A stretch of 64,000 nucleotides of DNA from a virus. Positions 37,660 through 61,400 of this stretch are shown here, in pieces (positions within the stretch are counted from its first letter, which is position 1; each line of letters opens with the position of its first letter). The translations under genes and the position numbers were made by a program. The notes under the pieces are model-generated. The model was not told where the DNA came from. It ran no database searches and was given only the letters and a program-made list of their open reading frames with translations. The stretch spans positions 1 to 64,000 of the IMG/VR virus record IMGVR_UViG_3300042475_004859. The stretch is one strand, 5' to 3'.

Positions 37660-38907
37660 TTAATAGACAATTACGGTACCAAGGGGGCTATTGAAATAAG
37701 TGCCTGTCGGTGTATTTGCTGGCCCTTCTTTTTTGTATGTCCAAGAATCACCCCCTAGACATGGAGTTCCTCCAATAGTATTAGTATTAAATGATATATA
37801 CCATTCAGCTAACCTAGTAGGAGAATTAAGTGCGGAAGAATCAATAGAATTGTATTCTATTTCAACTGGATTACCGCAACTATCAGCTCCAGACCAGTAA
37901 CATGGACTTATACGTTCAACAATTACATTTTCATTAATAGAAGCTTCATAGTTGCCAATATTTTCGTAATTGAGTGCTACATTATAAGTACCAGAAAATT
38001 GGTCTTCTATTAAATTACTACCTTGTGTAAAAATTCCAGATCCACTAATTAAACAAGGGCCAATATTAATACTATTTTCGCTATCATTTAACGACCATAA
38101 GCTATTAATTACTTGTAATGTTAAATTTCCTGTTGCGTAAGCACTGCCAGTTTTGTTCATACTGCCCGTGAAATGACCTGACCAATTTACAGTAACGATA
38201 TCTGGTAAATCTTGGGCATTATAATAGCTACCCAGTCCCAATCCTGGATACATGCAGCAAGAAAGTTCTTCCGTTCCACCCCCTCCGCCCCCTCCGCCCC
38301 CTCCGCCCCCTGAGGACGAACTACTAGATGAACTTGAAGAGTTGGGACATCCTAATACTAAATTTATGGGCCCAATGTTCATACCAGTTATACGATAAAC
38401 AGCATCTAAAAGAACAACTTCATTAGGATTAATTTGTGAAGGGATACCGATATTAAGAATTAATACATTTTCTCCCAAAATAAAAGGTAAATTATTACCG
38501 CCTGGAGAAAGACTACCACCATAACCATCTATGAAACTTACCCCTACCATATTTAACCCTTGTTGCAAGCCAAAGAAGCTAATACTATTTCCTGGACCAA
38601 TAGAATATCTTTTTGCGTTAGAAGTAAAACCTGATACTATTTGACTATTACCCTGACTAGCTCCTAAAAATTGCCATTTATTTATATCGCAAGATGGTAT
38701 AGAAGAACTTGAAGAGCTCGAGGAGCTCGAGGAACTTGAAGAACTAGAGGAGCTCGAAGAGGAAGGTGGTGGCGGACATTGACTACTACTACTACTACTA
38801 CTTATAGGGGTCCCTTCACAAGAACAATTATTTAATAGGTCAAAATATTTTCTTTGACCAGGTGGTTGAAAAGATTCGCAAATTCCAAATCTAATAAATT
38901 CACTCAT
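37660..38907 (-). CDS. Polyserine/polyglycine-linked virion protein
   Basis: 415 residues. Short N-terminal domain, then serine runs (including 21 Ser from 38701-38763), a compact beta domain (CDINKWQFLGASQGN...), a second serine run, 12 Gly (38275-38310), and a C-terminal beta domain ending NSPLGTVIVY. Cys pairs (ELSCCMYPG, PCYWSGADSCG) occur in the last domain. A near-identical copy of the terminal codons survives as a remnant at 43411-43437. Probably a fibre or knob protein. Confidence 0.55.
   Translation of the reverse strand: MSEFIRFGICESFQPPGQRKYFDLLNNCSCEGTPISSSSSSSQCPPPPSSSSSSSSSSSSSSSSSSSSSIPSCDINKWQFLGASQGNSQIVSGFTSNAKRYSIGPGNSISFFGLQQGLNMVGVSFIDGYGGSLSPGGNNLPFILGENVLILNIGIPSQINPNEVVLLDAVYRITGMNIGPINLVLGCPNSSSSSSSSSSGGGGGGGGGGGGTEELSCCMYPGLGLGSYYNAQDLPDIVTVNWSGHFTGSMNKTGSAYATGNLTLQVINSLWSLNDSENSINIGPCLISGSGIFTQGSNLIEDQFSGTYNVALNYENIGNYEASINENVIVERISPCYWSGADSCGNPVEIEYNSIDSSALNSPTRLAEWYISFNTNTIGGTPCLGGDSWTYKKEGPANTPTGTYFNSPLGTVIVY
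38275..38310 (-). repeat. Polyglycine tract with 9-bp repeats
   Basis: Twelve Gly codons built largely of a repeated CCTCCGCCC-type unit (plus strand). It is GC-rich against an AT-rich background and lies beside a serine run. Confidence 0.8.
38701..38763 (-). repeat. Polyserine tract, 21 Ser codons
   Basis: Mixed TCT, TCG, TCC, TCA, AGT and AGC codons encode 21 serines in the protein at 37660. The codons are mixed rather than perfect repeats. Confidence 0.9.
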
Positions 38908-41900: not shown

Positions 41901-43336
41901 CTATTTCCAGTAAATAAAAATGCAGCTCCAGCGTCTTGTCCATTTGTAGAATCTTTGATAGCTCCTACACCTATAATGGAACCATCATTATTCATGGAAA
42001 CACTCCATCCTAATTCAGTAATATTTGGTACCGTATCAGCTAAAACTTGTTTCTCTACCCACCCAGCATTTTTATTTCCAGTAAAGATTTTTATAACCCC
42101 ACCTCTTAAATTTCCATTAATGTTCAAAAGACCCCCATAATTGGCACCCCCTGGGGTTCCGACAGCAAGTATTGTTCCTTGGTCATTTATAGCGATACTT
42201 TTTCCAAAATAAGCAAAACCAAAAGTAGTTCCTTCTTGGGAGACTGGATAGCTTAAATCTTGTTTAAGGGACCATCCATTATTTTTATCTCCAACATATA
42301 CACGAACACCGCCTGAGGTTCCATCTAAATGCCCACCCATCATTATTACAGTTCCATCACTATTGGTCGCAACGCTTGATCCATATCTACTACCATCATT
42401 TTTTCCTAAGAGTCTTTGTTTTAATGACCAGCCATTAGTTTTATTTCCAGTGAATACTAATGCAGCTCCAACCTTATTTCCTTGAGTGTCATCATCTGGA
42501 CCGCCAAGGATAACTACAGTACCATCAGAATTTGTAGCAACGCTTGTTCCCCACTCATCATGACCTAAAAATCCACCTTCATAAAACGGATTATCATCAC
42601 TAGTATTTCCTAATATTTTTTCTTTAAATACCCATGGATCAAGATTATTAGGACTACTACTACTACTACTACTACTGCTTGATGATGGCTCTCCTCCACC
42701 ACAATCAAATTTATTAATAATAACACCATTAACAACTTGATAAATTTTATTAAGATTTGCAGGTCCTACATACCATTGATAATAACCATTTGGAGCGGGC
42801 GACGGGTTTACAACATTACTTCCATAAAAATTACACCCGACTGGAAAACCAGCTGAATAACAAGCATTAGTAAAGGATATGCTTACTATTGAGCCGGTAT
42901 TACAAGTAATCGGAGTATTTGTATAATAATAAGCATTTGATCCAATAAGATTTAATGACGAAGATGACGAAGATGAGGAAGATGAGGAAGACGAAGACGA
43001 AGATGAGGACGAAGATGAGGAAGAAGACGAAGAACTAGATGTTGAAATCAATTGACCATTAGGGCCCAATCTTGCAAAATTATTTACTAATGGAATATTA
43101 TTATAAGTGTTAAAATTACCGCCTACCAGTATATCATTATTAGATTCAATAAAAACTGAATTAACAGAGTTGTTAAAACCATTACCTATATTAAAGGTTG
43201 TATCTATTGTTAAATTGTTATTTAAACGTATAATTCTATTATAATTTTGACCCAAATATTGTGTAAAGTCCCCCCCAACGAGAATTTTCCCGTCAGACTG
43301 TTTTGCTACGGCTCTAACAACATTATTAAAATACAT
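38918..43336 (-). CDS. Giant modular fibre protein: delta-60 propellers, FG-GAP-like repeats, FN3
   Basis: 1472 residues. Order: N-terminal delta-60 (DUF5122-like) repeats (GKILVGGDFTQYLG, DILVGGNFNTYNN); a 28-Ser linker (42956-43039); the Cys-rich module ending VVNGVIINKFDC; an 11-Ser linker (42653-42685); about seven FG-GAP/beta-propeller-like repeats each with the pattern TGN-x-NNGWSLKQ; an FN3 domain at about 680; a second delta-60 set (QGNIYVGGLFRAVNG, GKVLVGGKFNYG, FIYVGGNFTSYGS); another FN3 (ALGVESNTILLKWSPV). No enzyme motif. Such propeller and FN3 chains bind surfaces, so a tail-fibre adhesin is the best reading. Confidence 0.8.
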   Translation of the reverse strand: MYFNNVVRAVAKQSDGKILVGGDFTQYLGQNYNRIIRLNNNLTIDTTFNIGNGFNNSVNSVFIESNNDILVGGNFNTYNNIPLVNNFARLGPNGQLISTSSSSSSSSSSSSSSSSSSSSSSSSSSSSLNLIGSNAYYYTNTPITCNTGSIVSISFTNACYSAGFPVGCNFYGSNVVNPSPAPNGYYQWYVGPANLNKIYQVVNGVIINKFDCGGGEPSSSSSSSSSSSPNNLDPWVFKEKILGNTSDDNPFYEGGFLGHDEWGTSVATNSDGTVVILGGPDDDTQGNKVGAALVFTGNKTNGWSLKQRLLGKNDGSRYGSSVATNSDGTVIMMGGHLDGTSGGVRVYVGDKNNGWSLKQDLSYPVSQEGTTFGFAYFGKSIAINDQGTILAVGTPGGANYGGLLNINGNLRGGVIKIFTGNKNAGWVEKQVLADTVPNITELGWSVSMNNDGSIIGVGAIKDSTNGQDAGAAFLFTGNSTNGWSLKQKLLSDTAGDKFGHSVKFSKNGNIFVVGSQTDSQSSPSAGAVTIFNGDPNNGWTFRQKITESPTFYFGDSVSTNFDGSVISVAATNYGQGGNTPTSFIYQGNANNGWSYVQRMMGSYGNYNSPNTYGISAGGLEMTDDGLVVFVGNSKDDTVNTDVGATNVYVNSTIPSNFRVSGVSSRAAFLLWDPVNNASSYSMDVSTNSNFTDLIINNRTFTTFSGIVSGLDIDSSYYARVRSVFPTFTSLNSSPLSFRTFLNRGEHITGFVSPYFASNYIPNGPGYVSALDTDQQGNIYVGGLFRAVNGQEFSNLVKLFPDGEVDLSFGRFGTNGQIESMIYDDTINKLYIVGRFFMVDGTPRPGIARLNPNGTIDHTFRPPDFDPGNSTTTSMILSLALQPNGKVLVGGKFNYGRFRYGNIIRLNSDGSVDSTFLPYVSVNGFINDIKLQDDKILLVGGSWGGWTQIGRLLSDGSADNTFWKCNTCLQGGFTGPVNTLTNTSDNFIYVGGNFTSYGSASFYRGIVKLTQNGQLESPDSRIGYQPGINGLVNKIFIDDNHSSVVIGGFFSQYGSAALYIRTENVKNIVAITPQGFIDNTFYPFHVPMTVYGTNNPINTISKNKTSDSLFIGGNFTTFNDEMANKIALIKNNYESTKPLINNPTSAPSTPTGLKALGVESNTILLKWSPVSNAKRYLVDYSTSSSFAQGSTIFNSQAFNNSITLNNLSSNQLYYVRVRAVNRAGNSPYSTVLTVGTIPTTPSNQPYFNFGNGWDPNDVIDTTKISVSVTLPVGVQTIKVDISSDGFYKEYLPGFNNFLITSNGTNTSCGGSACTIYINIPKSLFEAGKRYYARYKVVGQYGDSFYSREINSIFIDPYVPDPGLNRQPYNLLWLDIASYSPSDCCLPTIPVKPENPPAVKTIYGPVGGLYSGAYIYAHPTSTNEVYLDQGYYIDTGDGTVASRTIYYITFGYGIWRPFNAYIVKQIGTCPFNLI
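42653..42685 (-). repeat. Polyserine tract, 11 Ser codons
   Basis: Eight identical AGT codons followed by AGC TCA TCA on the coding strand, encoding 11 Ser between the Cys-rich module and the FG-GAP-like repeats. Confidence 0.85.
42956..43039 (-). repeat. Polyserine tract, 28 Ser codons
   Basis: TCN-dominated tract (plus strand runs of gatgag/gaagac type) joining the N-terminal delta-60 propeller to the Cys-rich module. Codon choice differs from the tracts at 44591 and 47761. Confidence 0.9.
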
Positions 43337-43438: not shown

Positions 43439-45628
43439 TTAGCTAGATTGACATAATTTATAAACTAATGTTCCTCCAGCATATTGTAACCCATTCGAAG
43501 AATCAAAAACACCGCCAATAGCAAGAAAATCCCCATTATCAGACATATCTAAGCCCCATCCATATTCTCCGCTAGCACTTCCAGTTAATTTTTGATTAAA
43601 ATTCCAACCATTTTGAGCATTACCTGTATATATTAATGTTCCTCCGAAATTATTAATTCCAGCACCGTCTCTTGGGCCGCTCATAGATAAAATTGTTCCA
43701 TTATTATTTACATCAACGTTCCATCCATAATCACCAAACGAATTATTTTTTATAGCTTGTTTTAATTGCCAACCGATTTGAGAGTTACCAGTATAAATAT
43801 ATCCAGATTCTAATGTTCCATCTCCAATAAATAAAACGGTCCCATCATTATTAGAGCTAACACTATAACCAAAAGTAGAAGGGTTTGCCCCGGTAATTGT
43901 TTGTTTTAAAGTCCATCCATTTTGAGAATTTCCAACATAAGCTCTTGCGGCTCCATAGTATAATGGACTACGATCTTCCCTAGGTGATCCGATTAATATA
44001 ACATTTCCATTGCTACTTATACTTACATCAAAGCCAAACTGGTCAAATGCTTGAAAATTATTAAATTTTAATTGGTCTCTTAAAGTCCATCCATTTTGCG
44101 GATTACCCACATAAATCATTGCATACCCCCCACCTATTAAAGGATCATTTACAAAACCATATGGCGCACCAACAACAATTACACTAGCATCATTATTAGC
44201 ATGAATACGATAACCAAAAGTACCCCCTAAACCAGTAATTGATTGTTTTATGCTCCATCCATTTTGTTCATTTCCGGTATAAATTTTAATTGATCCATTT
44301 ATAGTTTCAAAACTATTTGTAATTAAAACTGTACCACTATTATCACTTGCAATACTTTGGCCTATAGCAGAATTAGAGAAATTTCCTTCAATTTTTTGTT
44401 TAAAACCCCAATTTTGACCTTGTGTTCCAGTATATATAAGTACCGCACCATAGTCTCCACCACCACCAAAATCATAATAAGGCCCACCTATGAATAAAAC
44501 CGTTCCATTCGTATTTATTTTAGCAGAAGTCCCGAATCTAGCTTCCGCACGATCCCCCATAATTTTCTGAGTTAAACAGTATAATCCTTGAGAAGAGCTG
44601 CTCGATGAAGAGCTGCTCGACGACGAACTGCTCGACGACGAACTACTCGACGACGAACTGCTCGACGACGAACTGCTCGACGACGAACTGCTCGAAGAAC
44701 TTATTGATAAATTTTTATTAAGTTTAACAAATCTGTCTACAGGCTGGTTATTAAATACAGTAAATGAACCACCCACGTAAATATTGTTATTATCAGCATC
44801 AATAGCAAAAACTTCTTTTTTAGGACCACCAAAGTCACAACAGCCAATTTTATTTTCTATAAAATTAATTAAATTAAATGGGTTCGAGTTAATTATTCCG
44901 ATGTTTCTACTATAACCATTACCAACTTTTGAATCTAAAGTTGTTTGTAATATAAGCGAATTATCAATCTGTTGTTGCCCTGAATTAGAAGTAATAATTG
45001 TAAATTCATCTAAAGCGTCATGTTGAACTGTATTACTAAAAATAGAGAATACTAAATCTATAGAAACTAAAGGGTCTTTTTCTAAAATTTCTATTAATAA
45101 AACTTGCTGATAATCATTATAACATTTATTTCCATTTGCTGAAATTAAAATTGATCCTGGACCAACTCTTTTTGTAAATATTCTATAAACATTTTTTGAT
45201 AATTCTGTTATTGTAAAATAATCTAAATTTAAAGGCAATAAAGAAATTTCTAACTCACTGTCTAAAGAAAACCTAACATCAAAAAATTTTTCATCAATCT
45301 TTTTTTTCACATCATTAATTAACACGGGCCCATCTTTTGTTAATTCCTCTATTATTAATTTTTGATTAGATGGTTCTACATATAAAGATCGACAAATTTC
45401 TAACTCTTCAAACTCGTCTGTCCCCAATTGTTTAGCAAATATATCTGTAGCCCCAGCACAAACAATAGATACAAAACCATATTCATTTACTCTCGCTACG
45501 GATTCATCGCTAACTCTATATAATATTTTTCCAGGATTTGTACTTTTAACGTTTAAACTGAACTCTGGAGATGAAACTTCTTTCAAATCTATAAAAGGAA
45601 AATCAATAGTTGGAAAAGTTTTATACAT
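43439..45628 (-). CDS. Modular fibre protein: Ig-like, delta-60, polyserine, FG-GAP-like repeats
   Basis: 729 residues. Residues about 12-60 are a Big2/Ig-like segment (LYRVSDESVARVNEYGFVSIVCAG). A delta-60 unit (NIYVGGSFTVFNNQPVDRFVKL) lies at about 286, then 37 consecutive Ser (44591-44701). The C-terminal 350 residues are about seven repeats of a propeller type (YTGNEQNGWSIKQ, YVGNSQNGWTLKQTI, YTGNSQIGWQLKQ) shared with the gene at 38918. Its original C-terminus may have been exchanged, since a foreign gene end follows its stop codon. Adhesin or fibre role. Confidence 0.75.
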   Translation of the reverse strand: MYKTFPTIDFPFIDLKEVSSPEFSLNVKSTNPGKILYRVSDESVARVNEYGFVSIVCAGATDIFAKQLGTDEFEELEICRSLYVEPSNQKLIIEELTKDGPVLINDVKKKIDEKFFDVRFSLDSELEISLLPLNLDYFTITELSKNVYRIFTKRVGPGSILISANGNKCYNDYQQVLLIEILEKDPLVSIDLVFSIFSNTVQHDALDEFTIITSNSGQQQIDNSLILQTTLDSKVGNGYSRNIGIINSNPFNLINFIENKIGCCDFGGPKKEVFAIDADNNNIYVGGSFTVFNNQPVDRFVKLNKNLSISSSSSSSSSSSSSSSSSSSSSSSSSSSSSSSSSSSSSQGLYCLTQKIMGDRAEARFGTSAKINTNGTVLFIGGPYYDFGGGGDYGAVLIYTGTQGQNWGFKQKIEGNFSNSAIGQSIASDNSGTVLITNSFETINGSIKIYTGNEQNGWSIKQSITGLGGTFGYRIHANNDASVIVVGAPYGFVNDPLIGGGYAMIYVGNPQNGWTLRDQLKFNNFQAFDQFGFDVSISSNGNVILIGSPREDRSPLYYGAARAYVGNSQNGWTLKQTITGANPSTFGYSVSSNNDGTVLFIGDGTLESGYIYTGNSQIGWQLKQAIKNNSFGDYGWNVDVNNNGTILSMSGPRDGAGINNFGGTLIYTGNAQNGWNFNQKLTGSASGEYGWGLDMSDNGDFLAIGGVFDSSNGLQYAGGTLVYKLCQSS
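44591..44701 (-). repeat. Polyserine tract, 37 Ser codons in 15-bp units
   Basis: On the coding strand the tract is built mainly of the five-codon unit AGC/AGT-AGT-TCG-TCG-TCG repeated with synonymous changes only. The 15-bp period differs from the 12-bp period of the tract at 47761. Confidence 0.9.
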
Positions 45629-46870: not shown

Positions 46871-46880
46871 TAATTACACT
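46871..46880 (-). promoter_or_regulatory. Candidate late-type promoter box TAGTGTAATTA
   Basis: Minus strand TAGTGTAATTA, 11 nt before the ATG at 46859; TATAATA lies between. The TAG is the stop of the upstream glycosyltransferase gene. Confidence 0.35.
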
Positions 46881-47721
46881 ATTTATTTTTCAATAAAAAA
46901 TTATTATTTAATAATTTATTATATACATCCGGAAATAAATCTTTAAGTTTATTTTCTATTTTTTTAGCCGTTTCGGGTTTGTTTTTTGCACCCATTAAAT
47001 GGGTATATTTAATTTTATCTTCATACTCGAGAAGTATTTCACCATTTTCTTCATAAGATACCATTGGAATGATTTCTTGTATTTTTATATTAAATTCTTT
47101 TACAAGAACATATAAAGCAAATTGTTCAACAAAAGTACAGTCAATGAATCTAAAGTTATTTTTATAATTATTATTTAAATCTATTCCAAAGTCTGTCCAT
47201 TTTTTAATAAAGTCAATATCTTTAGCATTTATAAATCCACAATTATAACCAGCAAAATCATTTTCTATCAAATGATTTATAAGAAAATCATGTTTATTTT
47301 CATTATTACTTATATAATTTACAAATAATTCTTTATAAAATCCTGGGAAAAAATTATCAAACTCAAAGCTTTGTACAACCAAATTGCTTTCCGTGCCAAT
47401 ATTTAAAACATTTTCCCACAAAAACACATCATGATCGATATGAACAAATGGTTTCTTCTGGTTGTTCATTACATATAACTTCGGTACAGCCCATCGGTCA
47501 ATTGATAAAGAGTTACAGTATATATTTAGTATTTCTGTATTAAAACTTACATCATCAAGAATTCTACTTAAAATAAATTTTCCGTAATAATCTGTATAAA
47601 TAATTATTTTTGAAGCGTAATTTTTGCTTAAAGAAACAGATAACAATAAATTAATAATATTATTATATAAATTATTTTTTAAAAAATATGGTTTTGTCCA
47701 AAAAGTATAAACAATTTTCAT
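46879..47721 (-). CDS. GT-A glycosyltransferase (DUF6734-like) inside the fibre block
   Basis: 280 residues. It opens MKIVYTFWTKPYFLK. HIDHDVFLW at about 94-102 is a DxD metal/nucleotide-sugar motif, FAGYNCGFINAKD resembles the GT-A acceptor/donor loop, and THLMGAKNKP lies near the end. The gene begins directly at the stop of the giant gene upstream (TAAATG) and so is translated from the same mRNA. Its position between two polyserine proteins suggests it may glycosylate a fibre, but that is inference. Confidence 0.7.
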   Translation of the reverse strand: MKIVYTFWTKPYFLKNNLYNNIINLLLSVSLSKNYASKIIIYTDYYGKFILSRILDDVSFNTEILNIYCNSLSIDRWAVPKLYVMNNQKKPFVHIDHDVFLWENVLNIGTESNLVVQSFEFDNFFPGFYKELFVNYISNNENKHDFLINHLIENDFAGYNCGFINAKDIDFIKKWTDFGIDLNNNYKNNFRFIDCTFVEQFALYVLVKEFNIKIQEIIPMVSYEENGEILLEYEDKIKYTHLMGAKNKPETAKKIENKLKDLFPDVYNKLLNNNFLLKNK

Positions 47722-50700
47722 TTAGTTCAAAAATTCCATGCCAAGACCCTGAGCGCCAGCAGAGCTCGACGAGCTACTCGACGAGCTACTCGACGAGCTA
47801 CTCGACGAACTACTCGACGAACTACTCGACGAGCTACTCGACGAGCTACTCGACGAGCTACTCGACGAACTACTTGACGAACTACTTGACGAGCTACTCG
47901 ACGAACTACTCGACGAACTACTTGACGAACTACTTGACGAACTACTTGACGAGCTGCTACATATATAGCAATTACCTGCACCAGCAAAAGGTCCGAAATC
48001 AAAGTCTCTTTGACCTGTATATAAATAGCACTCTTGGTCTATACATACAAAATAATCTTCACTTGAGGAAGACGAACATCTTATTCCCAAGGATAAACAA
48101 CAATTATAAATATAATCACCACATGGATTTGTAATACGAACATTTGTAATTCCGAAATGGGGACTATTATTTCCTGGGGATGGCCTGATTGCTACAAAAA
48201 ATGGTTTTTGATTACCATCACCATCTTTATCTCCGAAGATTTTACGACTTGTTTCTTCGCTAATAATAGCTGAACTATATCTATCATAAGGACCATTATA
48301 AGGATATGGTCCAGGACCATTATCTTCTGGACCGCTTGCATTGTTTAGATTCGCATTTAAAACTAATACACCACTTATTATATCTTCTGTAATTACACAT
48401 TCTGGTGCGTAGCCTATATATATATCAAATTTAGCTCTATTACAAACATGACCCCCACCACATGGAGCACCTGGGAGTTCGTCGCATGGACAAGGGCCGT
48501 TTTCTTCATTACATTCGACCGCTTTACAAGGATCTAAATCACCATTTCCAACGCTATCAGAAGGTCCAGATGGATCTGCATTTCCAGTACACATTATGGT
48601 AGATTCTGGAGGGTTATTACGACTAAATAAGTGAAGATAAATTGCTTCAACAGTATGATTTGCTAAAGTATCAGAAGCACATCCAGGATCACAAGAAGAC
48701 GAAGAAGAAACGCAGTCAATTTCTTCATAAAAATTATTTTCCGTAGGGATTTGACTACCAGAAGAAATAATATAAGCTTTCCCTCGATAAACAAATTCAT
48801 CTTTTCCAGAAATATATGTGAAAGGGGCTCCAAACAACCAATTATCATTATCATTAGATAAACTATAACCCAGCCCATTAAAAGGTGGTATACATAAAGT
48901 ATTGTTATATATATTTTTAATATTATAACTAATCTTTCCGCTATTTAAAAATATTGGTTCTACATCTTCAACAATAAGATTCGCATTTACTTTTAATTCT
49001 GCCGCCGCGTTACCACCATAACTTAATAATTCTAAAGATAAAGATTGCCCACTACTAAGATTTCTAGTATAAGGACGAATAGTATGAGCTCCATTACCAC
49101 TTGTATTTCCACTGCAAACATTACTGTAAAATGGATATCGACCACTTTCATAAACAAAACCATTAATTACCAAATCATCATCAACACTACCAGTGATAGT
49201 TAACCTTAATCTTCCATTTAAATTATTTGTATAATTTCTTAATAAAAATTTTGAACAAGTACCATTTTCATTTCCACTGAAAAAAGATAAATTTTCAACA
49301 AAAAAGTTTTCAATAGTAGTAAAATTTCTTTTTCCGGTATCAAATATATATCCACTTATAAAATAAACAGAATTTTCAGACGGACTACCATAATATAAAA
49401 AATTGTTTTGCTCATTCAAGGCGAAACTCATTCCATAATTCGGCACCAAATAATTTAAATTATAAACTTGTAAAAATGGACTAGTTCTGTATATATTTAA
49501 AATACCGCTATTTAAATAAGGCACTCCATATAGAAATCCAGAACCATTTTTAGACATATAAGTATATTGACTAAAATGATATTTTTTTCTTAAATCTAGG
49601 CTGGGAGAAACGTCTTCTCGAATAATTGATTCAAGAGTATTATTATTATAATAATGAATATTAAATTTTTGAGGAGATAATTCCGATATAATATATTTAC
49701 CCCCATTATCACTAATAGAAACACTATCGCCAAAAAAAGTATTTTCATCTTGACTTGATAAAACATTATTTGGAACCCAATTCGAGTCCTGTTTATTATA
49801 AATGAAAACTTTCGATTTGCTTAAACTTTTATTTTTATTAATGTCCAAAATTTTAAAATCATATCTATTAATCCACGTGTTTCCATAATCTTTCGAAATA
49901 GAAATAGCTGGAATATCACTAAAATTTATATGTCCAATGCCAATTTGATATTCTCCATTATAACTAATAATTTGGTCAGATAATTCTACAGCATTAACAT
50001 TTTTGTCTGTGAACGATAGCCCAAAATCGTTAGATACAGATACAGTATCGGAGAATTCTTTGGTTAAAAATTGGAATTGTACATTATTACTCACACTTAT
50101 TCCAATACCACCCCCCAAATTTAATTTTTCTATAAACCATGTATTTCCATAGTCTGTGGATCTAAATAAATGACCCGGAGAGCTACCTGCCATATCACCA
50201 TAGTAAGATGTCGCATATTGGTCTTTTCCATTATTAAAAATTTTAACAGATGTTGTTATATAACCACTAGGCAAAACCTTTTCCGTCCAACTTTGCCCAT
50301 AATCTTCTGATACAAATAAACTAAAATAACTTCCAGCAATTTGATATTTTCCATCCGTACTCATGTCTAAACATGAATTTATTAATAAGCTAGGAAATCT
50401 TGTTCGCCAGCTTTCTCCAAAATTGTTTGAATTACGAATTTTATATCTTAAGCTAGATTCTCTAATTGTTGTTAGTTGATATCTACCATCATCACTAAGA
50501 ATAATATTTTTTATGTTAGTATTTGATCTATCAAAATGATCATCTTTTTGAGACCATGTTTCTCCGAAATTATTTGAAACATATACATGACCACTATTAG
50601 GAATTGCAACTTGGTAACGACCATCTCCATTTATAGCGACAGACTGCCAATACCTATCATTTTCTTTTTTATTCCAGGTGATTCCAGTATTGTTTGAAAT

Positions 50701-51462
50701 ATAGAGTTTATCTAAACCCGTAGTAATTGCTATTTGATACTGCCCAACTTGATATTGATTCGATAAGACATTAAAACCTGGAGCCCCGACAATTAGCCTA
50801 TTACCATTTTTATCGGTATCTATTGAATACCCGAAGTTTGCATTATATTCTCCGAAACCGCTAAGAATAGTCTCTAATAACCATTCTTCAGCGCTCGTTT
50901 CATTGTTTCCAGACTTATTGAAAACGTATACTGCCCCATAACCACTTTCATATAAGAAAGTATTATTAACATTATTTACTCCACCATAAAATGGTTCACT
51001 AACAAATAATCTATTTCCACTATAGTTTAAAACTATATTATGACCAAAATGACCGAAAGGAGAAGATCCATACAATTTCTTGGTTAGCTCCCAATCCGTT
51101 CCAGAAATATGTTTATAAATATAAACAGCTCCCACATTTTTTTTATTATCGTTCAAGTTTTCTTGTGGAGCGGAAATGGCAACATAATTTCCTGAATTAA
51201 TATCTACATCAAATCCATAATAATTAAAATTTTGTTGAGGCCCCCAAAAGAAATTACCAGTTGGAATTTTTGGTCTACCAGCTAGATCATGCAATCGCTT
51301 TGGAGAAAACGGGTCTGTAGCGCAACCACTATCACAAGACAAATGATACCTAAAGAATTTTGTATTACAACTTGTAATACAATCAATATCATTAATTATA
51401 TAATTTCCACTAAAATAGTCACCACCTATTTTAACGAGCTCCCCTTGTAAAAAATTATTCAT
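47722..51462 (-). CDS. Giant fibre protein with BNR-like and FG-GAP-like repeats and 66-Ser terminus
   Basis: 1246 residues. N-terminal FG-GAP-like repeats contain GNRLFVSEPFYGG and GNRLIVGAPGFN. The middle has repeated Asp-box (BNR-like) units: SNNTGITWNKKENDR, SNNFGETWSQKDDHF, SEDYGQSWTEK, STDYGNTWFIEK, SKDYGNTWINRY. Further on is a compact module (SVDDDLVINGFVYESGRYPFYSN...GAHTIRP) shared with the gene at 58404, then a Cys-rich section (CKAVECNEENGPCPC). The C-terminus is 66 Ser followed by AGAQGLGMEFLN. Asp boxes occur in glycan-binding propellers. A surface-binding role is likely. Confidence 0.75.
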   Translation of the reverse strand: MNNFLQGELVKIGGDYFSGNYIINDIDCITSCNTKFFRYHLSCDSGCATDPFSPKRLHDLAGRPKIPTGNFFWGPQQNFNYYGFDVDINSGNYVAISAPQENLNDNKKNVGAVYIYKHISGTDWELTKKLYGSSPFGHFGHNIVLNYSGNRLFVSEPFYGGVNNVNNTFLYESGYGAVYVFNKSGNNETSAEEWLLETILSGFGEYNANFGYSIDTDKNGNRLIVGAPGFNVLSNQYQVGQYQIAITTGLDKLYISNNTGITWNKKENDRYWQSVAINGDGRYQVAIPNSGHVYVSNNFGETWSQKDDHFDRSNTNIKNIILSDDGRYQLTTIRESSLRYKIRNSNNFGESWRTRFPSLLINSCLDMSTDGKYQIAGSYFSLFVSEDYGQSWTEKVLPSGYITTSVKIFNNGKDQYATSYYGDMAGSSPGHLFRSTDYGNTWFIEKLNLGGGIGISVSNNVQFQFLTKEFSDTVSVSNDFGLSFTDKNVNAVELSDQIISYNGEYQIGIGHINFSDIPAISISKDYGNTWINRYDFKILDINKNKSLSKSKVFIYNKQDSNWVPNNVLSSQDENTFFGDSVSISDNGGKYIISELSPQKFNIHYYNNNTLESIIREDVSPSLDLRKKYHFSQYTYMSKNGSGFLYGVPYLNSGILNIYRTSPFLQVYNLNYLVPNYGMSFALNEQNNFLYYGSPSENSVYFISGYIFDTGKRNFTTIENFFVENLSFFSGNENGTCSKFLLRNYTNNLNGRLRLTITGSVDDDLVINGFVYESGRYPFYSNVCSGNTSGNGAHTIRPYTRNLSSGQSLSLELLSYGGNAAAELKVNANLIVEDVEPIFLNSGKISYNIKNIYNNTLCIPPFNGLGYSLSNDNDNWLFGAPFTYISGKDEFVYRGKAYIISSGSQIPTENNFYEEIDCVSSSSSCDPGCASDTLANHTVEAIYLHLFSRNNPPESTIMCTGNADPSGPSDSVGNGDLDPCKAVECNEENGPCPCDELPGAPCGGGHVCNRAKFDIYIGYAPECVITEDIISGVLVLNANLNNASGPEDNGPGPYPYNGPYDRYSSAIISEETSRKIFGDKDGDGNQKPFFVAIRPSPGNNSPHFGITNVRITNPCGDYIYNCCLSLGIRCSSSSSEDYFVCIDQECYLYTGQRDFDFGPFAGAGNCYICSSSSSSSSSSSSSSSSSSSSSSSSSSSSSSSSSSSSSSSSSSSSSSSSSSSSSSSSSSSSSSSSSSAGAQGLGMEFLN
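47761..47958 (-). repeat. Polyserine tract, 66 Ser codons in 12-bp units
   Basis: About 16 units of the four-codon AGC-TCG-TCG-AGT. Differences between units (AGC/AGT, TCG/TCA) are all synonymous, so serine is kept while the DNA drifts. It makes the antisense frames open. Confidence 0.95.
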
Positions 51463-51533
51463 ATATAATTCTATTATTATATTAATTTATTGTTAATAAT
51501 TATAAATATTATTATTTAAATTTAAAATCAGTT

Positions 51534-54500
51534 TCATATTGTTGTAAAATAACCGGTAACATAATCACTAACGCCATTAAGATTTTGATTTATAGATCTT
51601 AAACGTGTGTAGTATGTAGTGTTTGCACTCAGTCCAGTGATAAAAATACCACTCATTATAATTGCTCTATTTCTATTCCATTTTAAGCCCCATTCTATTT
51701 CTTGATATTGTTCAAGCGTCCAATACCCTGTTGGATTTGAAATTAAATCTTGAAAATTAATAATTTTGTTATTATAACCAGGAATAAAATTAAGAAAATT
51801 CGAGTTTGTAGAAACATCTAAAATATAATTTGTTGTTTTTTCGTTTATATAATAAAACATTCCAGGAATAGGCGTTCTTAATCTTTCTGACCTATCAAGA
51901 GTTATTAAATCTTCTGGTACCGAAGCAAGACTTGATCTTGGATTAGGAATATAAACAACTGGAGTATAACGACTATTTTCTATTCTTGCCCAATTTATAA
52001 AAGCTTTGTTAGTACTAATATTAGTAAATATAGCATGGCCAGGTTTTTCAATTACTGGTTGAGCAGTCATTTCTTTAATTAAAATAGTCTGTGGAAAATT
52101 ATTTTCAATAATTTCTATTCTATATCCGCTATTTATATTCAAAATATTTTCATTAATGTTATTATAAAATATAACTATATCATTTTCTTTAAAAATTCCG
52201 GATTGGCTATATGTTGTTAATTGTAAACCACACCCATTATTTCTGGGGGAATATATTTCATCATAAAATGCCGTATTTGACATTATTGCGCTAGATCCTG
52301 AAATAGCACGAATAAATAATGGGGTTGTAGGTCCATAAGAAATACTTCCATTACTATTTCCGGATTTTAACCCATTCAATGGTAAACATTTAGATTTAGT
52401 CGTAAAAATAAAACCAGACGAATAAGTATTATTAATTCCGCTACTTAGAACAAAAGTACTTTGCCCATTTGGATTTGAAAAATATGGATATACACATTTT
52501 GTTAGCGAAGACACTGAAGGTAAGTCACTTACAAACCCAGAATTTCCAGGATAATACCCACCACAAGCCCTATCAGATTTATATGGGTATACCACTTGAG
52601 AACTAGGCCAAGTTCTATTACTAGCCCAATAATATATTGGGCTATGCCATGCTTTTATCATAGATTTAAATCTAATATAATATGTAGTATTTTCTTGAAG
52701 ATTCGGTATTAGAATAGATCCATTTTTATTGTAATCTCCTTTTACAAATTCATAATCTTTATAAATAAAATTGGCAAAATTCGAATTTGTAGAAACATCC
52801 ACTAAATAATATAGCCCACTTGTAATATAAGTAGAATAGTCTTCTGTTATATAATATTGGTCACGAGAGTTTTTAAATGATATCCCAATCGAAGACGAAG
52901 TCGGTCTAGACGATTCAATATTTTTTAAAACGCTTGGGAGGGTATAAAAATATTTAATATATCCATTTGATTGACCAAAATTATTTTCTGGAACCACTTT
53001 AAAAAAATATAAAGTAGAAGGGTTTAAATTATTAACTATCTCAATATTTGATTGAATACTTTTGTTTTCATACCCACTAATATAATCAAATATATTATTA
53101 TTAAGACTACTTCTTCCTATACTCAATTTATAATTGTTAGCGCCTTGAATAAAATTCCAATTTATTGTAACACTATTTTCTGTTATATTAGATGTGGAAG
53201 TTTGATTTGTAAATAAATTTTGTGGAAGAGAAGTAAAAGTACATGTAGAGGAAATAAATTGAAAATTATTCAATGTATTTCCATAACCGATTCTTAAATA
53301 ATATGTAGTCCCTGGAGTTATACGTAATTCAGCCGTTTGACTTATTAATACTTCATTTAATGTTGATAAATATCTTTTATAACTGCTAGAATTTGTAAAA
53401 CTAGGATTTGTAGATAACTCTACTGTGTAAATTGTATAAGCAGGATTTGCATAAAAATTAACTGTAAAAGATTCTTGCCCTATATTTGTAACAAATGGCC
53501 CTACAATACTTACAGAAGCAGTTTTTATGGTTAATATATTTGAGTTTAGACTAGAACCATTATTATTTAAAGCTCTAATTCTTACATAATAAACTGTTCC
53601 GGGTTTTAAACCTGTTACAAATTCGTTTGTTATTTTTACTTCTTTATTTAAATATCCTGGTATAAAATTAGTAAAATTAATATTCTCAGAAATATCAATA
53701 CGATATTCGATAGCATTTTGAACAAAAGACCATTGAAGTGAGAATGTTGTAGGATTAATATCGGATACAGATAAATTATTTGGTGGTTGTAATACATTAC
53801 TAGAAGAGCTGCTAGAAGAACTGCTGAATAATTTTAAAGTTTTAGCTGATATAATTGGTGAGTTTATGCTAGTATTTCTAGAATCTATAGAACGAAAACG
53901 AATATAATAAGTTTTATCATTTTCTAAATTAACAATATTTTCTTGATAATTAGCATTTGCAAGTTTATTTTCGTAACCAGTTAAATAATTTATAAAGCTT
54001 GAATTAGAAGAAATGTCTAATCTATAGCCGGTAGCTTCATTTATACCCGTCCAATTAATTTGAAATGAATTTAGAGTAATATTTGAAATATTAATTTGCG
54101 TTGGCGGTCTTAAATCTAATGTTCTAACTAACTGTGTTGGAGAAAAAGTTTCATTTACACTGTATTCATTTGCTGTCCGTATTCTTACATAATAATTTGT
54201 ACTTGGGAATAATCCAGAAACAATATTAGAGTATCCAGTTACTATTTTATTTTGATAATTATTTACATAGTCTATAAAATTAGATCCAGTTGAAACATCT
54301 AAAATATAATAAGTAGCACCAAAAGTGTTAGCCCAATTAGTTTGAAAAGATTGGTGTTGAATATTTGAAAATGTAACATAGCCTAGATTTATTGGAGACG
54401 TTTTAATTTGAAACTTTTCTGAATATGGGCTTATATTTAAATTATCAATTGCGCCTCTTACACGGGTATAATATGTAGTGCCAGGAATAAGATTGTTTAT

Positions 54501-56732: not shown

Positions 56733-56737
56733 AAATT

Positions 56738-58399
56738 TTATTCCTCTTCAATAGTTGGGGGTGAAACAAAAATAGTTTGTATGAGAGTAGGTGTATTTGG
56801 GCTTATTCCTAAAGAATTTTGAGATCTTATTCTTATATAATATGTATTTCCATCATTTAAATTTTCTATGTTTTCGCTATTAGTAAAAATTAGCTTGTTT
56901 TCGTAACCAGAAAGATAATTAGAAAAATTAGTATTTTCTGAAATATCTAGCCTATAATTTTCAGCACTGTTAACAATATCCCATGTTAATGTGAAACTTT
57001 TATCTGTTAAATTTGTTATGACTACATTCGTTGGCGGAGTAGGTATACTAGTAACAACACTCGACGAACTACTCGACGAACTACTCGACGAGCTACTCGA
57101 CGAGCTACTCGACGAGCTACTCGACGAGCTACTCGACGAGCTACTCGAAGAAATTAAATCACCAGCATACAAATTAAAAGTTTGCTCAAAAGCAGTAGAT
57201 TCTTGATAAGTATTTTTATTTATAACAATTCCTTTAAAAATAAAATTAATTACAGTTTGCCCATTATCTATTACTTCTAATATTCCATACTGCATCGCTG
57301 AACCCGTTCCGGAGTCATCCATAATTGGTCCAATAGTATAAGGACCACCTTTTGCTCTAATTTCTTGATCTAAAGGGGCCGCATGACACACTTTTAAATT
57401 ACCATAGTTATTAAAACTAGACCCGTCATCAAAAGCAAGCGCATGCATATCTCCAGAAAGAATTACTATACGATTATTTAGATTATTATTATTGATAAAA
57501 TCAACAATCTCCATTCTCGCAGCATGATAACCACCCCAATCATCTTTCCCATTTTCGACGGCAGAAATCCAAGGTTTTGTGTTTACCCAAACTATAATTT
57601 GATTACTATTTTTTGCAGATAACATTTCAGAAAAAAACCAGTTTTTCTGATTTGATGAAAATACCTCTTGTCTAATATCTGTAGATGGAAAAGTATTTTT
57701 TGGCTCTCTTTCGCTTCTAATATCTGTAAAAATAAAACGAACACGACCACGAACAAAACTATAATACGGGGCACTTAAACTTGCCGTATTCGCTAATAAA
57801 TGTTTATATGGAACCCTATTTCTAAATGCAGCAACAGCAGCATTCCTTGATGGATTATTTTTATCTGTGTCATTTGGTCCATAATCATGATCATCCCACA
57901 TATAATACATTGGTAAATTTTTCCAGCAATTATTTTGGCGCGGGGCGCTAAAAACTTTATTATATGCGTCATGAAATAAAGGTTCTATATTGACAGAGAT
58001 ATCGCTATAGTGCATATCCCCTAAATGAATAAAAAAATCTAAAGTATTGTTTATGGCTTTATTCGCAATATTATCATATATAATAGCATTTGATCCAGAT
58101 ATTTGATTTGACCAAGAACAAGAACCAAAACCAAATTTAAAATTATGATGCCCAACTTGTGAAGTTTTAAAACTGCCAGTAAAATTGTCAATTGGTATAT
58201 AGTTAGAATTTACTAATCTAACATAATATTTAGTGTCAGGTAAAAGACTATTATTACTAAATTTTATTAAATTATAATCAGAAATTATTTCTGATGGGAG
58301 TGATTCAGAATTTATGCTAGCAAAATTTTGACCAGTAGAGAATTGAGCTATATAGCCTGACTCAGGTCCAGTCATTTTAAATGTAATATTTGCTTTCAT
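56738..58399 (-). CDS. PhoD-like phosphatase fused to polyserine and FN3
   Basis: 553 residues. N-terminal FN3-like segment (1-80), then a PhoD-type metallophosphatase: FGFGSCSW at about 90-96, HLGDMHYSD at 125-133, YMWDDHDYGPND at about 166-177, and VILSGDMHALAFDD further on, the residues that bind metal in PhoD. A 31-Ser tract (57059-57151) and a C-terminal FN3 domain follow. PhoD enzymes cleave phosphomono- or diesters. Here it could open phosphate-containing surface polymers of the host or release adsorbed virions; that use is inference. Confidence 0.85.
   Translation of the reverse strand: MKANITFKMTGPESGYIAQFSTGQNFASINSESLPSEIISDYNLIKFSNNSLLPDTKYYVRLVNSNYIPIDNFTGSFKTSQVGHHNFKFGFGSCSWSNQISGSNAIIYDNIANKAINNTLDFFIHLGDMHYSDISVNIEPLFHDAYNKVFSAPRQNNCWKNLPMYYMWDDHDYGPNDTDKNNPSRNAAVAAFRNRVPYKHLLANTASLSAPYYSFVRGRVRFIFTDIRSEREPKNTFPSTDIRQEVFSSNQKNWFFSEMLSAKNSNQIIVWVNTKPWISAVENGKDDWGGYHAARMEIVDFINNNNLNNRIVILSGDMHALAFDDGSSFNNYGNLKVCHAAPLDQEIRAKGGPYTIGPIMDDSGTGSAMQYGILEVIDNGQTVINFIFKGIVINKNTYQESTAFEQTFNLYAGDLISSSSSSSSSSSSSSSSSSSSSSSSSSSSSSSVVTSIPTPPTNVVITNLTDKSFTLTWDIVNSAENYRLDISENTNFSNYLSGYENKLIFTNSENIENLNDGNTYYIRIRSQNSLGISPNTPTLIQTIFVSPPTIEEE
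57059..57151 (-). repeat. Polyserine tract, 31 Ser codons in 12-bp units
   Basis: The 12-bp unit AGC/AGT-TCG-TCG-AGT matches the tract at 47761 almost exactly, although the genes are about 9 kb apart. It links the phosphatase and FN3 domains. Confidence 0.93.
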
Positions 58400-58403
58400 A
58401 ATT

Positions 58404-61400
58404 TTAATCTACACTTATCCATATTGATTCCGTTTGGGTCAAGAGACTCGAAGAGCTTGAAGAACTCGAAGAGCTCGAAGATCCGCCTAAAACACCAGTA
58501 ATTACACATAAATCAGCAACCATATTTCCTCCGTAACTTTGAATACCAATCTTTAAAGAGTCCCCTGGCATAAGGGTTTGTGAGTATGGGGTTATTGTAT
58601 GGGCCCCATTCTTTGGAGTAGTATAATTGCAACCACCAGGCCAGAATGGATATTTGCCATCTTCATAAATCTGATCATTAAATAATACATCGTCATCTAC
58701 CCCACCAGACACATAAATTGTAATCGGGAAAGTATTGGTATTTGTATAAGTTTTAATTGGATTCATTGTCGCACAACTGCCAAAATGCGTTTGATATATG
58801 AATAAGTTTTCACCATTATTATCAGCACATTTCGGGAATGAAGACGAAGAAGAACTGCATAATCCACTATTCATAATTATACCACTATTTACATAAAACC
58901 ATTTAGGTTTAGCTCCAAAAATGTGACCATTCAATTCTGCGTAATATCCATCTTCAGCCGGATTTAAATATTTATCTTTATATAAAGGACAATCAATATT
59001 TAATCCACAATATTTATTTCTATAATAACGACGAATAGTTCTTGAAGAACACGATTCGTCTTTATAACATGAAAATCTTAGTGGAGTTAATGACGTCGGA
59101 TTTGGTATTATTTTAACAAAATTAGAAGTATATCCAGATAAAAAGCCGGTATACATAAAATCAGAATCTTTTCTAGGCCAGGAGCCGAAACAGTCAAAAA
59201 AGCAGTTTCTGTCGCTTGGATCACCAGAAACATAATATGTTGGTTTGATAACACTAAATTTTATATATGTAGAATCGCAAGGGTCAAAAAAGAAAGTGGG
59301 TGATCTTATAACTTCAATACATGGTGGAATCCCAGTATTATATAAAATATTATCTAAAGTTTTTAAACTTTCTTGCCATCCGGCAAATTGGGTGTCATTA
59401 GCTATTTCATGATAATCTGGAATAATAATTGGAATAAGAGATTTTTTAATACCAGAAAAATTTAAATAAACATTATCGCTATTAAATAATTCTTCAACAA
59501 TTTGATTCTTAATACGAAAATAATTTTTACCGAAAGGTAAATAACCAGTCAAAATTTTATTATTTAATAAAACTGGATCATTAATACTATTAACTATATA
59601 ACCAGAGACTTCTATTCCAGAGCTGTCAAACAAACCAAAAGCCGTCCAATTTCCATTTTCTTCCGAAGCTGTTTCCCAGTATATGTTTGTATTATAAACG
59701 AAGCCACTTAATTTAATATAAAAAGGGTTATCTGGATTTAATTTTATTTTATCCAAATTTGGATAATACCCATTTGATTCTGGTGATAAATTATTATACA
59801 CAACCAGCTCATCTTGGTAAAAATATTCTGTTAAGACATTCCCATTTATATCGACTTCTTCTTCACAGTCGTATGTTTGAACAGGATTGCCTTTAGTATC
59901 TAAAACTGGGTTTCCTTCCTCATCAAAACTATTAACTAATCTTAATGGAAGCTTTGGTATAGTAATAAAACCACCATATTCGTCCAAAACTGGATCCCCA
60001 TTTTCATTTCGTAAAACTTTACATTTTTTCTGTTTCTTAAATTCTGGTCTTCCTAAGAAATCCGTCCGTTGCTTGTATAATAAATTACCACTAATATCTG
60101 TTTTGTGAACTTTATAATCATCAAAATCACCGACTTTTTCTTTTTTACTTAACTGTGTTCCAATATAATTTGCAGACCCCTTTTCTTTTCCAGGTGCAAA
60201 AGGTAATTGGAATAAATTATTAAAGTATCCATCTCCAGATATAGTATAACCTAGTCTTGAGATACGAGTTCTCCCTCCAATGGGATAGCCAGAAAAGATA
60301 AAAATAAAACCAGATTTTAACTGAAACTCGCTACTTTCATATTGCCATTCAACCCCACTTAATAAAGGAGATACTGCAAAAGCATCTTTAGCGAATCTAT
60401 ATAATCTTGGGTCATATGGTTTTCCTACAATAGGTATTTGCCTAACAGCTGGTGGGGTGCCACTAATTTCAAAAACACCGGGAAATTTTAATAAATCTTC
60501 TGCGCAAAAATCTTGAAAAGTAATTTCTTTTTTTAAACCCGTTACTATATATCCAGAAGTAGGTATTTTTTTAACGCTCATGGTTCTTGGGTTAAAAGCC
60601 TCTTCGTCTAACAAATTTAAAAATTCTTCACCGCTTATATGTCCTGCCCATGGTTTTGTGATTGTCCAGGAACCAGGTTCAAAAAATTGTGCAAAATCAC
60701 CTAATATTTTTCCACTTATTCGACTTGGTACTCCGATGGCAGTGGCAAACCCAAAAACATCAAAAAATCCTGTCACACGACCCGTTACCGCTAACAGAGG
60801 TGATTTTAAATTTATAGTACTTAATTCTTCTGATTTGTAATCAGCATATATAACACCAGTATATTTAATAAACTGAGTGTCGATTCCAGTTACAAAACCT
60901 GTAATAGTAGATCTTCCTGCGTTTTCTGAACCTATAGTACTACAAATACTTAATTCGGGTCTATATTTACATAATATATTTAAAGTACTGTCACTTAAAA
61001 CCGTAGATCTTCTTAATATGCCTTCAGTATCATATTCCCAACCATAATAATCATCTCTTTTAAAACCAGTTCCTACGCCAGAATAATAACCTGTTAAAAA
61101 TCCACCTAAATACGTAACAGTTCCTTTATACTCAACATCCTTAACAAAAGATTTGGCGCTTATATCTGAAAATAAATCGGCGTCACCAATACCAGTTAAT
61201 GTAAAATCATATTTAAAAGAAACAAAACCTGGTGGATAATAACGATATAAATTAAAATAATATCCAGATGTAATACCTATAGTTGTAGAATCATGGGATG
61301 TAAACAAGCTACCATTGTTTAAAACTAAATCAATAGTATTATTTTCTATATAATTTGATAAATTATACTGGTTATAATTTCCAGTATATAAACTTATTTT

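What the first reader, a model, noticed from the sequence alone, without database searches (positions are those of the whole stretch)
47761..47958. 66-serine linker made of synonymous-only variants of a 12-bp tandem repeat
About 16 copies of a four-Ser unit differ only at synonymous sites (AGC/AGT, TCG/TCA). This points to tandem expansion followed by selection for serine, and such a repeat can change length quickly by slippage. The period and codons match the tract at 57059 and differ from the 15-bp repeats at 44591. The repeats are far more GC-rich than the rest of the genome. They could act as flexible spacers, glycosylation sites and recombination points for domain shuffling.
Basis: partly seen in the sequence, partly recalled or inferred. 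Interest (0 to 1): 0.7.

Follow-up and report, generated by a model that had tools for sequence, protein, structure and literature searches.

The report
Poly-serine tail on phage tail adhesin
A large phage known only from metagenomes carries long runs of pure serine on its host-contact tail proteins; the runs mark places where protein domains are swapped between relatives, and in this phage lineage they go together with phage-encoded sugar-attaching enzymes, which suggests a sugar-coated flexible tail that has never been tested.

Summary
In detail: 47761-47958 encodes 66 consecutive serines in 16.5 copies of a 12-bp unit with only synonymous changes. It is not a linker. Only 12 residues follow, so it is a C-terminal tail on a 1,246-residue protein of a phage tail module. 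The genome has eight more such tracts (S9-S37).

Identical tract DNA in near-identical phages from different metagenomes argues against an assembly artefact; lengths change once flanks diverge by a few percent. Homology between relatives breaks at tracts far more than elsewhere (45% continuous against 89% at random positions), so tracts mark module junctions. Long tracts are TCG-rich (45% against 5%).

New link: the next gene (46879-47721, DUF6734, 'unknown function') has a GT8-like glycosyltransferase fold and DxD motif; another phage repeats this tract-gene/DUF6734 order. Eight of eight tract-bearing relatives carry DUF6734 or a second glycosyltransferase pair, against none of ten tract-less relatives. 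Searching by that pair recovered new tract-bearing contigs (4 of 6 of at least 50 kb, against 0 of 20).

Best reading: flexible poly-Ser spacers/tails on tail adhesins, probably O-glycosylated by phage enzymes. Glycosylation is inferred, not shown.

The parts
47761..47958 (-). 66-codon poly-Ser tract, 12-bp unit AGY AGY TCG TCR x16.5
47725..47760 (-). C-terminal 12-residue peptide after the tract (AGAQGLGMEFLN), loosely like IQGIGIDSFLNL at the end of the L398 tract gene
   Evidence: similarity read by eye only
47722..51462 (-). 1,246-aa tail-module protein: weak FG-GAP and BNR repeats, several modules, C-terminal poly-Ser
47959..48645 (-). domain just before the tract, 49% identical to part of a poly-Ser protein of relative G008 that has another module order
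46879..47721 (-). DUF6734 gene directly downstream; predicted GT8-like GT-A glycosyltransferase (invariant HxDxD; C-terminal HL..K)
57059..57151 (-). S31 tract, same 12-bp unit, between PhoD-like phosphatase and fn3 domains (gene 56738-58399)
44591..44701 (-). S37 tract, 15-bp unit AGC AGT TCG TCG TCG, before FG-GAP repeats (gene 43439-45628)
42956..43039 (-). S28 tract, TCN codons mostly (gene 38918-43336)
42653..42685 (-). S11 tract (gene 38918-43336)
38701..38763 (-). S21 tract (gene 37660-38907)
38311..38340 (-). S10 tract followed by poly-Gly (gene 37660-38907)
53799..53825 (-). S9 tract inside the fn3-array protein (gene 51534-56732)
58446..58481 (-). S12 tract, again C-terminal, followed by LLTQTESIWISVD (gene 58404-63455)

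Best explanation
The tract is a C-terminal poly-serine tail on a large tail-tip/adhesin-type protein of a tailed phage, one of nine Ser tracts in a hypervariable, mosaic tail module. SHOWN: pure-Ser tracts are spread over this module; they sit where homology between relatives starts and stops; they consist of 9-, 12- or 15-bp repeat units and differ in length between diverged relatives; in this lineage they co-occur with specific glycosyltransferase genes, and the gene directly downstream is a predicted GT8-like glycosyltransferase. INFERRED: in the virion the tracts are extended, flexible, hydrophilic spacers or tails that join or carry interchangeable binding modules; phage glycosyltransferases add O-linked sugars to the serines in the infected cell, giving a mucin-like segment that is stiffer, protease-resistant and possibly adhesive or shielding. 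The short peptide after the tract may be a docking tip.
For: Tail module: in relative G008 a 3,121-aa tape-measure protein is followed, in the same direction, by the orthologues of the window genes with Ser tracts. Replication genes are mostly about 84-99% identical among G001-G005 and G008, while the Ser-tract module is about 25-55% identical and mosaic. Homology is continuous across 45% of tract/subject pairs against 89 +/- 5% at matched random positions, p<1/2000. In G001 two otherwise unrelated genes share a 65% identical C-terminal domain that begins right after a Ser block in both. DUF6734: AF2 pLDDT 79.8, pTM 0.84; the Foldseek hits shown are GT8/GT24-type and similar glycosyltransferases, best E 1.7e-5, including GlyE of S. 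pneumoniae. In a second phage (L398/L403) a tract gene is also followed directly by DUF6734, 41% identical. DUF6734 or the pair: 8/8 tract-bearing against 0/10 tract-less relatives (Fisher 2e-5). Only two ORFs segregate perfectly with tracts (5+/10-), with any of five reference genomes, and they are an adjacent GT4 gene and a DxD-bearing gene. Out-of-sample search by the DxD gene: 4 of 6 new contigs of at least 50 kb have tracts against 0 of 20 relatives without it.
Against: No biochemical evidence for glycosylation. In about 45 other poly-Ser contigs, mostly of other lineages, the DxD gene was found only in G058, and DUF6734 was absent from seven tested contigs, so poly-Ser does not need these enzymes. 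Two new contigs of 78 and 121 kb with the DxD gene showed no tract at the sensitivity used. The GT pair lies tens of kb from the tail module, and adjacency is seen only for DUF6734 and only in two phages. Phylogenetic contrasts are few and the Fisher tests ignore kinship. Tail location is by synteny with a relative; no virion proteomics. The DxD-gene model was poor (pLDDT 48) and unused.
Confidence: 0.5

Rival explanations
1. Plain, unmodified flexible spacer or tail, like polyserine linkers in secreted carbohydrate-active enzymes. The glycosyltransferases act on DNA, lipids or host surface sugars and co-occur for other reasons.
For: Polyserine linkers without a known modification separate modules in Saccharophagus degradans enzymes (PMC2386152). 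Poly-Ser is common in phages of many lineages that lack these GT genes. Phage GTs often act on DNA or host surfaces (PMC12619734).
Against: Perfect segregation of the two GT genes with tracts, adjacency of DUF6734 to tract genes in two phages, and the out-of-sample recovery of tracts. No other gene, such as a base-modifying enzyme, segregates with them.
Confidence: 0.37
2. The DNA repeat is the functional thing: a recombination or slippage hotspot kept to shuffle receptor-binding modules, with poly-Ser as the harmless read-out.
For: Homology breaks at tracts; the same 15-bp unit occurs in non-homologous genes of G000 and G002 (83-bp identical stretch); the tract strand folds better than dinucleotide shuffles, z -5.1.
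Against: Domain boundaries alone would give the same break pattern. Units in different phages differ (9, 12, 15 bp). Unit fold-back energies rank only at 6%, 18% and 32% among all Ser units. C-terminal tracts have no downstream domain to swap. DNA-identical tracts in near-identical phages argue against a hotspot.
Confidence: 0.1
3. Neutral slippage product tolerated in disordered regions, without function.
For: Tract-less close relatives G003 and G004 exist and are nested among tract-bearing ones.
Against: Purity for Ser over 66 codons in several different repeat units, recurrence at many positions of the tail module, and linkage to GT genes are not expected of neutral repeats.
Confidence: 0.07
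4. Assembly artefact.
For: The array of 198 bp exceeds common short-read length; read data are not available here (inference, no tool result).
Against: Longest internal repeat 50 bp. Many contig pairs from different metagenomes with identical flanks have identical tracts, though these are other tracts.
Confidence: 0.03

Closest known systems
Polyserine linkers (PSL) of Saccharophagus degradans / Cellvibrio carbohydrases
   Same: Near-pure Ser runs of 25-58 residues between modules of extracellular modular proteins (PMC2386152)
   Different: Here in phage tail-module proteins; several are C-terminal tails; co-occur with glycosyltransferase genes
Serine-rich repeat glycoproteins (GspB, Fap1, PsrP) and their glycosyltransferases
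   Same: Long Ser-rich acceptor region with linked glycosyltransferase genes (PMC6973325); the DUF6734 model resembles GlyE, which I recall as a PsrP-pathway enzyme
   Different: Pure Ser instead of Ser-X repeats; no cell-wall anchor seen; phage-encoded; accessory Sec not looked for
Staphylococcal Ser-Asp repeat proteins with SdgA/SdgB
   Same: Low-complexity Ser region glycosylated step-wise by two enzymes, which gives protease protection (PMC3794999)
   Different: Different repeat, different enzymes, bacterial cell surface
Virion glycosylation in mycobacteriophages Che8, Corndog, Myrna
   Same: Phage-encoded glycosyltransferases modify virion proteins, reported at C-termini of capsid and tail tube subunits (as cited in PMC12619734 and PMC12363180)
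   Different: No poly-Ser tract described in the passages read; different phages and enzymes

Membership tests
Polyserine linker (PSL) | near-pure Ser run of about 25-60 residues | tested here: met
   S66, S37, S31, S28
Polyserine linker (PSL) | separates two folded domains | tested here: not met
   S66 and S12 are C-terminal (12 and 13 residues follow); S31 and S37 do separate domains
Serine-rich repeat glycoprotein (SRRP) | alternating Ser-X repeats | tested here: not met
   pure Ser, translation
Serine-rich repeat glycoprotein (SRRP) | C-terminal cell-wall anchor (LPXTG type) | tested here: not met
   C-terminus AGAQGLGMEFLN
Serine-rich repeat glycoprotein (SRRP) | linked glycosyltransferase genes | tested here: met
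   DUF6734 directly downstream, GT8-like fold; L398 same order
Serine-rich repeat glycoprotein (SRRP) | SecA2/SecY2 export cluster | not tested
   not searched
GT8-like GT-A glycosyltransferase (for DUF6734) | GT-A fold | tested here: met
   AF2 pTM 0.84, Foldseek best E 1.7e-5, query TM-scores 0.33-0.54 among the listed hits
GT8-like GT-A glycosyltransferase (for DUF6734) | DxD metal motif | tested here: met
   invariant H94, D96, D98 in 7 members
GT8-like GT-A glycosyltransferase (for DUF6734) | sugar transfer activity | not testable with these tools
   needs an enzyme assay
Tailed-phage tail-tip/adhesin protein | encoded in the tail module downstream of the tape measure gene | tested here: met
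   by synteny with G008: tape measure 47561-56926, then the orthologues
Tailed-phage tail-tip/adhesin protein | present in virions | not testable with these tools
   needs virion proteomics

The most novel reading that the evidence does not exclude
A phage-encoded protein O-glycosylation system (a GT8-like DUF6734 enzyme, plus a GT4/DxD-enzyme pair) decorates pure poly-serine tracts on tail adhesins, making mucin-like glycosylated tails and spacers whose length and position change between relatives.
Probability: 0.4. Interest if true: 0.78.

Novelty: new variant of a known kind. Interest (0 to 1): 0.6.

Why it matters
It proposes a function for a Pfam family of unknown function (DUF6734) and for low-complexity Ser tracts that are normally masked out of phage analyses. 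If right, phages carry their own mucin-type modification system for host-contact proteins, which would bear on adsorption, protease resistance and shielding. It also gives a simple genomic marker (pure-Ser tracts) for module junctions in hypervariable tail proteins.

Tried and rejected
(1) The hairpin-slippage explanation of TCG enrichment: the 12-bp unit ranks high (15-20 of 336), but the 15-bp unit (18%) and 9-bp unit (32%) do not, so only weak support. (2) tRNA supply: G002 encodes tRNA-Ser(UGA) and tRNA-Ser(GCU), matching TCR+AGY, but so does tract-less G003; not causal. (3) A TCN scan of viral contigs returned mostly non-Ser frames, probably the antisense of acidic tracts. (4) Host search in GTDB with the phage polymerase: nothing. 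(5) Direct relatives of the S66 protein or of DUF6734 by pattern in viral contigs, or of the S66 protein in phage records: none. (6) A helix module GGQNAALML..LLE after tracts is real in G002/G005 but not found in G000 by HMM. (7) TCG enrichment is not clearly general in other phages with poly-Ser: no GC class shows a significant rise. (8) A first WSN pattern was too degenerate. (9) AF2 of the DxD pair gene gave a poor model.

Full report
WHAT IS THERE. The window is 64,000 bp of a 67,146-bp IMG/VR virus record. The left part carries phage replication genes: DnaE-like polymerase, primase, DnaB helicase, exonuclease and ribonucleotide reductase. At 47761-47958 the minus strand encodes 66 consecutive serines: 16 full units AGY AGY TCG TCR plus AGC TCT, TRF 95% matches. 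Variation is confined to third positions of three columns and all changes are transitions. Since 8 of 36 single changes in the unit are synonymous, three synonymous columns by chance is about 0.01; this is suggestive only, because copies are not independent. GC is 0.52 against 0.31. The tract is near the end of ORF 47722-51462 (1,246 aa) and is followed only by AGAQGLGMEFLN, so it is a C-terminal tail and not a linker. Eight further Ser runs of 9-37 residues lie in six neighbouring genes. These genes include FG-GAP and DUF5122 repeats, fn3 arrays and a PhoD-like phosphatase.

NOT AN ASSEMBLY ARTEFACT, NOT HYPERMUTABLE. The longest internal repeat is 50 bp, and 69 bp with the 57059 tract. For other tracts of the same type, many contig pairs from different metagenomes with 100% identical flanks have identical tract DNA, up to a 229-residue block. 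When flanks differ, lengths often differ: S25 against S35 (flanks 98.8/93.4%), S20 against S16 (92.5/92.9%), S13 against S19 (81%); one pair (95/86%) kept S25 with different DNA. Between G002 and G005, homologous over 896 residues at 78.5% identity, one protein has tracts of 34 and 111 Ser and the other 13 and 13. No close relative of the S66 gene itself was found, so its own polymorphism is unknown.

RELATIVES. A ribonucleotide reductase query gave more than 80 related viral contigs. Replication proteins of G001-G005 and G008 are mostly about 84-99% identical to the window's, while proteins of the Ser-tract module are about 25-55% identical and mosaic. In G008 a 3,121-aa tape-measure protein precedes the module in the same direction, so these are tail-tip or adhesion proteins by synteny. 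Tracts of at least 8 Ser occur in G000, G001, G002, G005/G006 and G008 but not in G003 and G004, which are nested among them in a tree of conserved proteins (the node joining G003 to G001 is weakly supported), nor in the more distant relatives fetched.

CODONS. Pooled over five phages, TCG is 5% of Ser codons in runs of 1-3, 12% in 4-9, 19% in 10-20 and 45% in runs of 21 or more; TCT falls from 34 to 12%. All ten long tracts exceed the background. The pattern does not generalise clearly to poly-Ser tracts of other phages. Hairpin-assisted slippage was tested and is only weakly supported.

TRACTS AS MODULE JUNCTIONS. After cutting the tracts out of all proteins, homology to other proteins was continuous across 45% of tract/subject pairs, against 89% (sd 5%) at random positions in the same proteins; 0 of 2,000 random sets reached this. 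A clear case: G001_51561 and G001_53947 share a 65% identical C-terminal domain beginning directly after a Ser block, while their N-terminal parts are unrelated. The domain before S66 (49% identical over the aligned segment) appears in G008 fused behind a region that in the window is a separate gene. This fits domain shuffling, but tracts at ordinary domain boundaries would also give it.

GLYCOSYLTRANSFERASES. The gene that starts directly after the S66 gene's stop codon is DUF6734 (Pfam E 9e-33). Seven family members share invariant HxDxD and a C-terminal HL..K. Its AF2 model (pLDDT 79.8, pTM 0.84) matches GT8/GT24-type glycosyltransferases in the PDB, best E 1.7e-5, including glycogenin, xyloside xylosyltransferase and GlyE of S. 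pneumoniae; that GlyE belongs to the PsrP serine-rich repeat pathway is from my own knowledge. In L398/L403 (the same phage type in two metagenomes) a gene with S36+S16 tracts is likewise followed directly by DUF6734, 41% identical. DUF6734 occurs in tract-bearing G000, G002, G005, G008, G038/G039 and G040, and in none of the tract-less relatives tested. A presence/absence profile over all ORFs found exactly two that are in all tract-bearing genomes (G001, G002, G005, G008, G058) and in none of ten tract-less ones; the result is the same with any of the five as reference. They are adjacent: a GT4 glycosyltransferase (Glycos_transf_1) and a protein with FIDADH.FVR, a DxD-like motif. G058 is a distant member (polymerase 64% identical to tract-less G026), a second independent contrast. 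Counting either kind of gene: 8/8 tract-bearing against 0/10 tract-less, Fisher 2e-5 without correction for kinship.

OUT-OF-SAMPLE TEST. Scanning viral contigs with the DxD protein gave 23 loci. Of six new contigs of at least 50 kb, four have Ser tracts (G099, G107, G108 by pattern; G110 by translation), against 0 of 20 relatives without the gene by pattern (Fisher 0.001). G109 and G112 show none at this sensitivity. The link holds in this lineage but is not perfect, and the DxD gene is absent from nearly all unrelated poly-Ser contigs tested.

WIDER PICTURE. Pattern scans found 69 viral loci with 213 Ser tracts of 10 or more, at GC 0.27-0.66; 54 lie within 60 residues of the C-terminus. Near-identical contigs are among them, so these are not 69 independent phages. 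Ser tails are thus a recurrent feature, apparently little described: the only paper found on phage low-complexity regions that mentions poly-Ser (PMC6821194) ties it to bacterial polysaccharide-binding proteins. My literature search is limited to open papers.

CONCLUSION. Shown: real poly-Ser tail in a mosaic tail module, tracts at module junctions, length variation between diverged relatives, and co-occurrence with phage glycosyltransferase genes. Inferred: spacer or brush function and O-glycosylation. The glycosylation reading is the most interesting and is directly testable.

Noticed in passing
window 30000-64000 against 1-30000: Sharp contrast in divergence: replication genes mostly about 84-99% identical to relatives, tail module about 25-55% and rearranged.
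   Followed up: yes
window 56738-58399: PhoD-like phosphatase/phosphodiesterase domain joined by an S31 tract to an fn3 domain, in a phage tail module.
   Followed up: partly
window 58404-63455, C-terminus; G002 84843 and G005 orthologues: Beside Ser tracts a short repeated motif LWIDPE(N) in G002/G005 and SIWISVD in the window, possibly a docking peptide.
   Followed up: partly
G002 and G005 (three genes each): A 26-residue amphipathic-helix module GGQNAALMLNILKLLE... follows Ser-rich stretches in unrelated proteins of one genome (HMM i-E 1e-13 to 6e-15).
   Followed up: partly
L428/L435, L012, L013, L422, L448, L459: Other phages carry poly-Ser tails at the end of several small virion-type proteins in one genome; one contig of 436 kb has a 229-residue Ser block.
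   Followed up: no
G002, G003, G005: Large tRNA sets; G002 and G003 include both tRNA-Ser(UGA) and tRNA-Ser(GCU), G005 the latter.
   Followed up: no
window 23152-24234, 26166-28085, 28087-29286: Three further glycosyltransferase-like genes conserved in tract-bearing and tract-less relatives alike.
   Followed up: no
window 38275-38311: Poly-Gly tract (12 Gly) directly after an S10 tract in gene 37660-38907.
   Followed up: no
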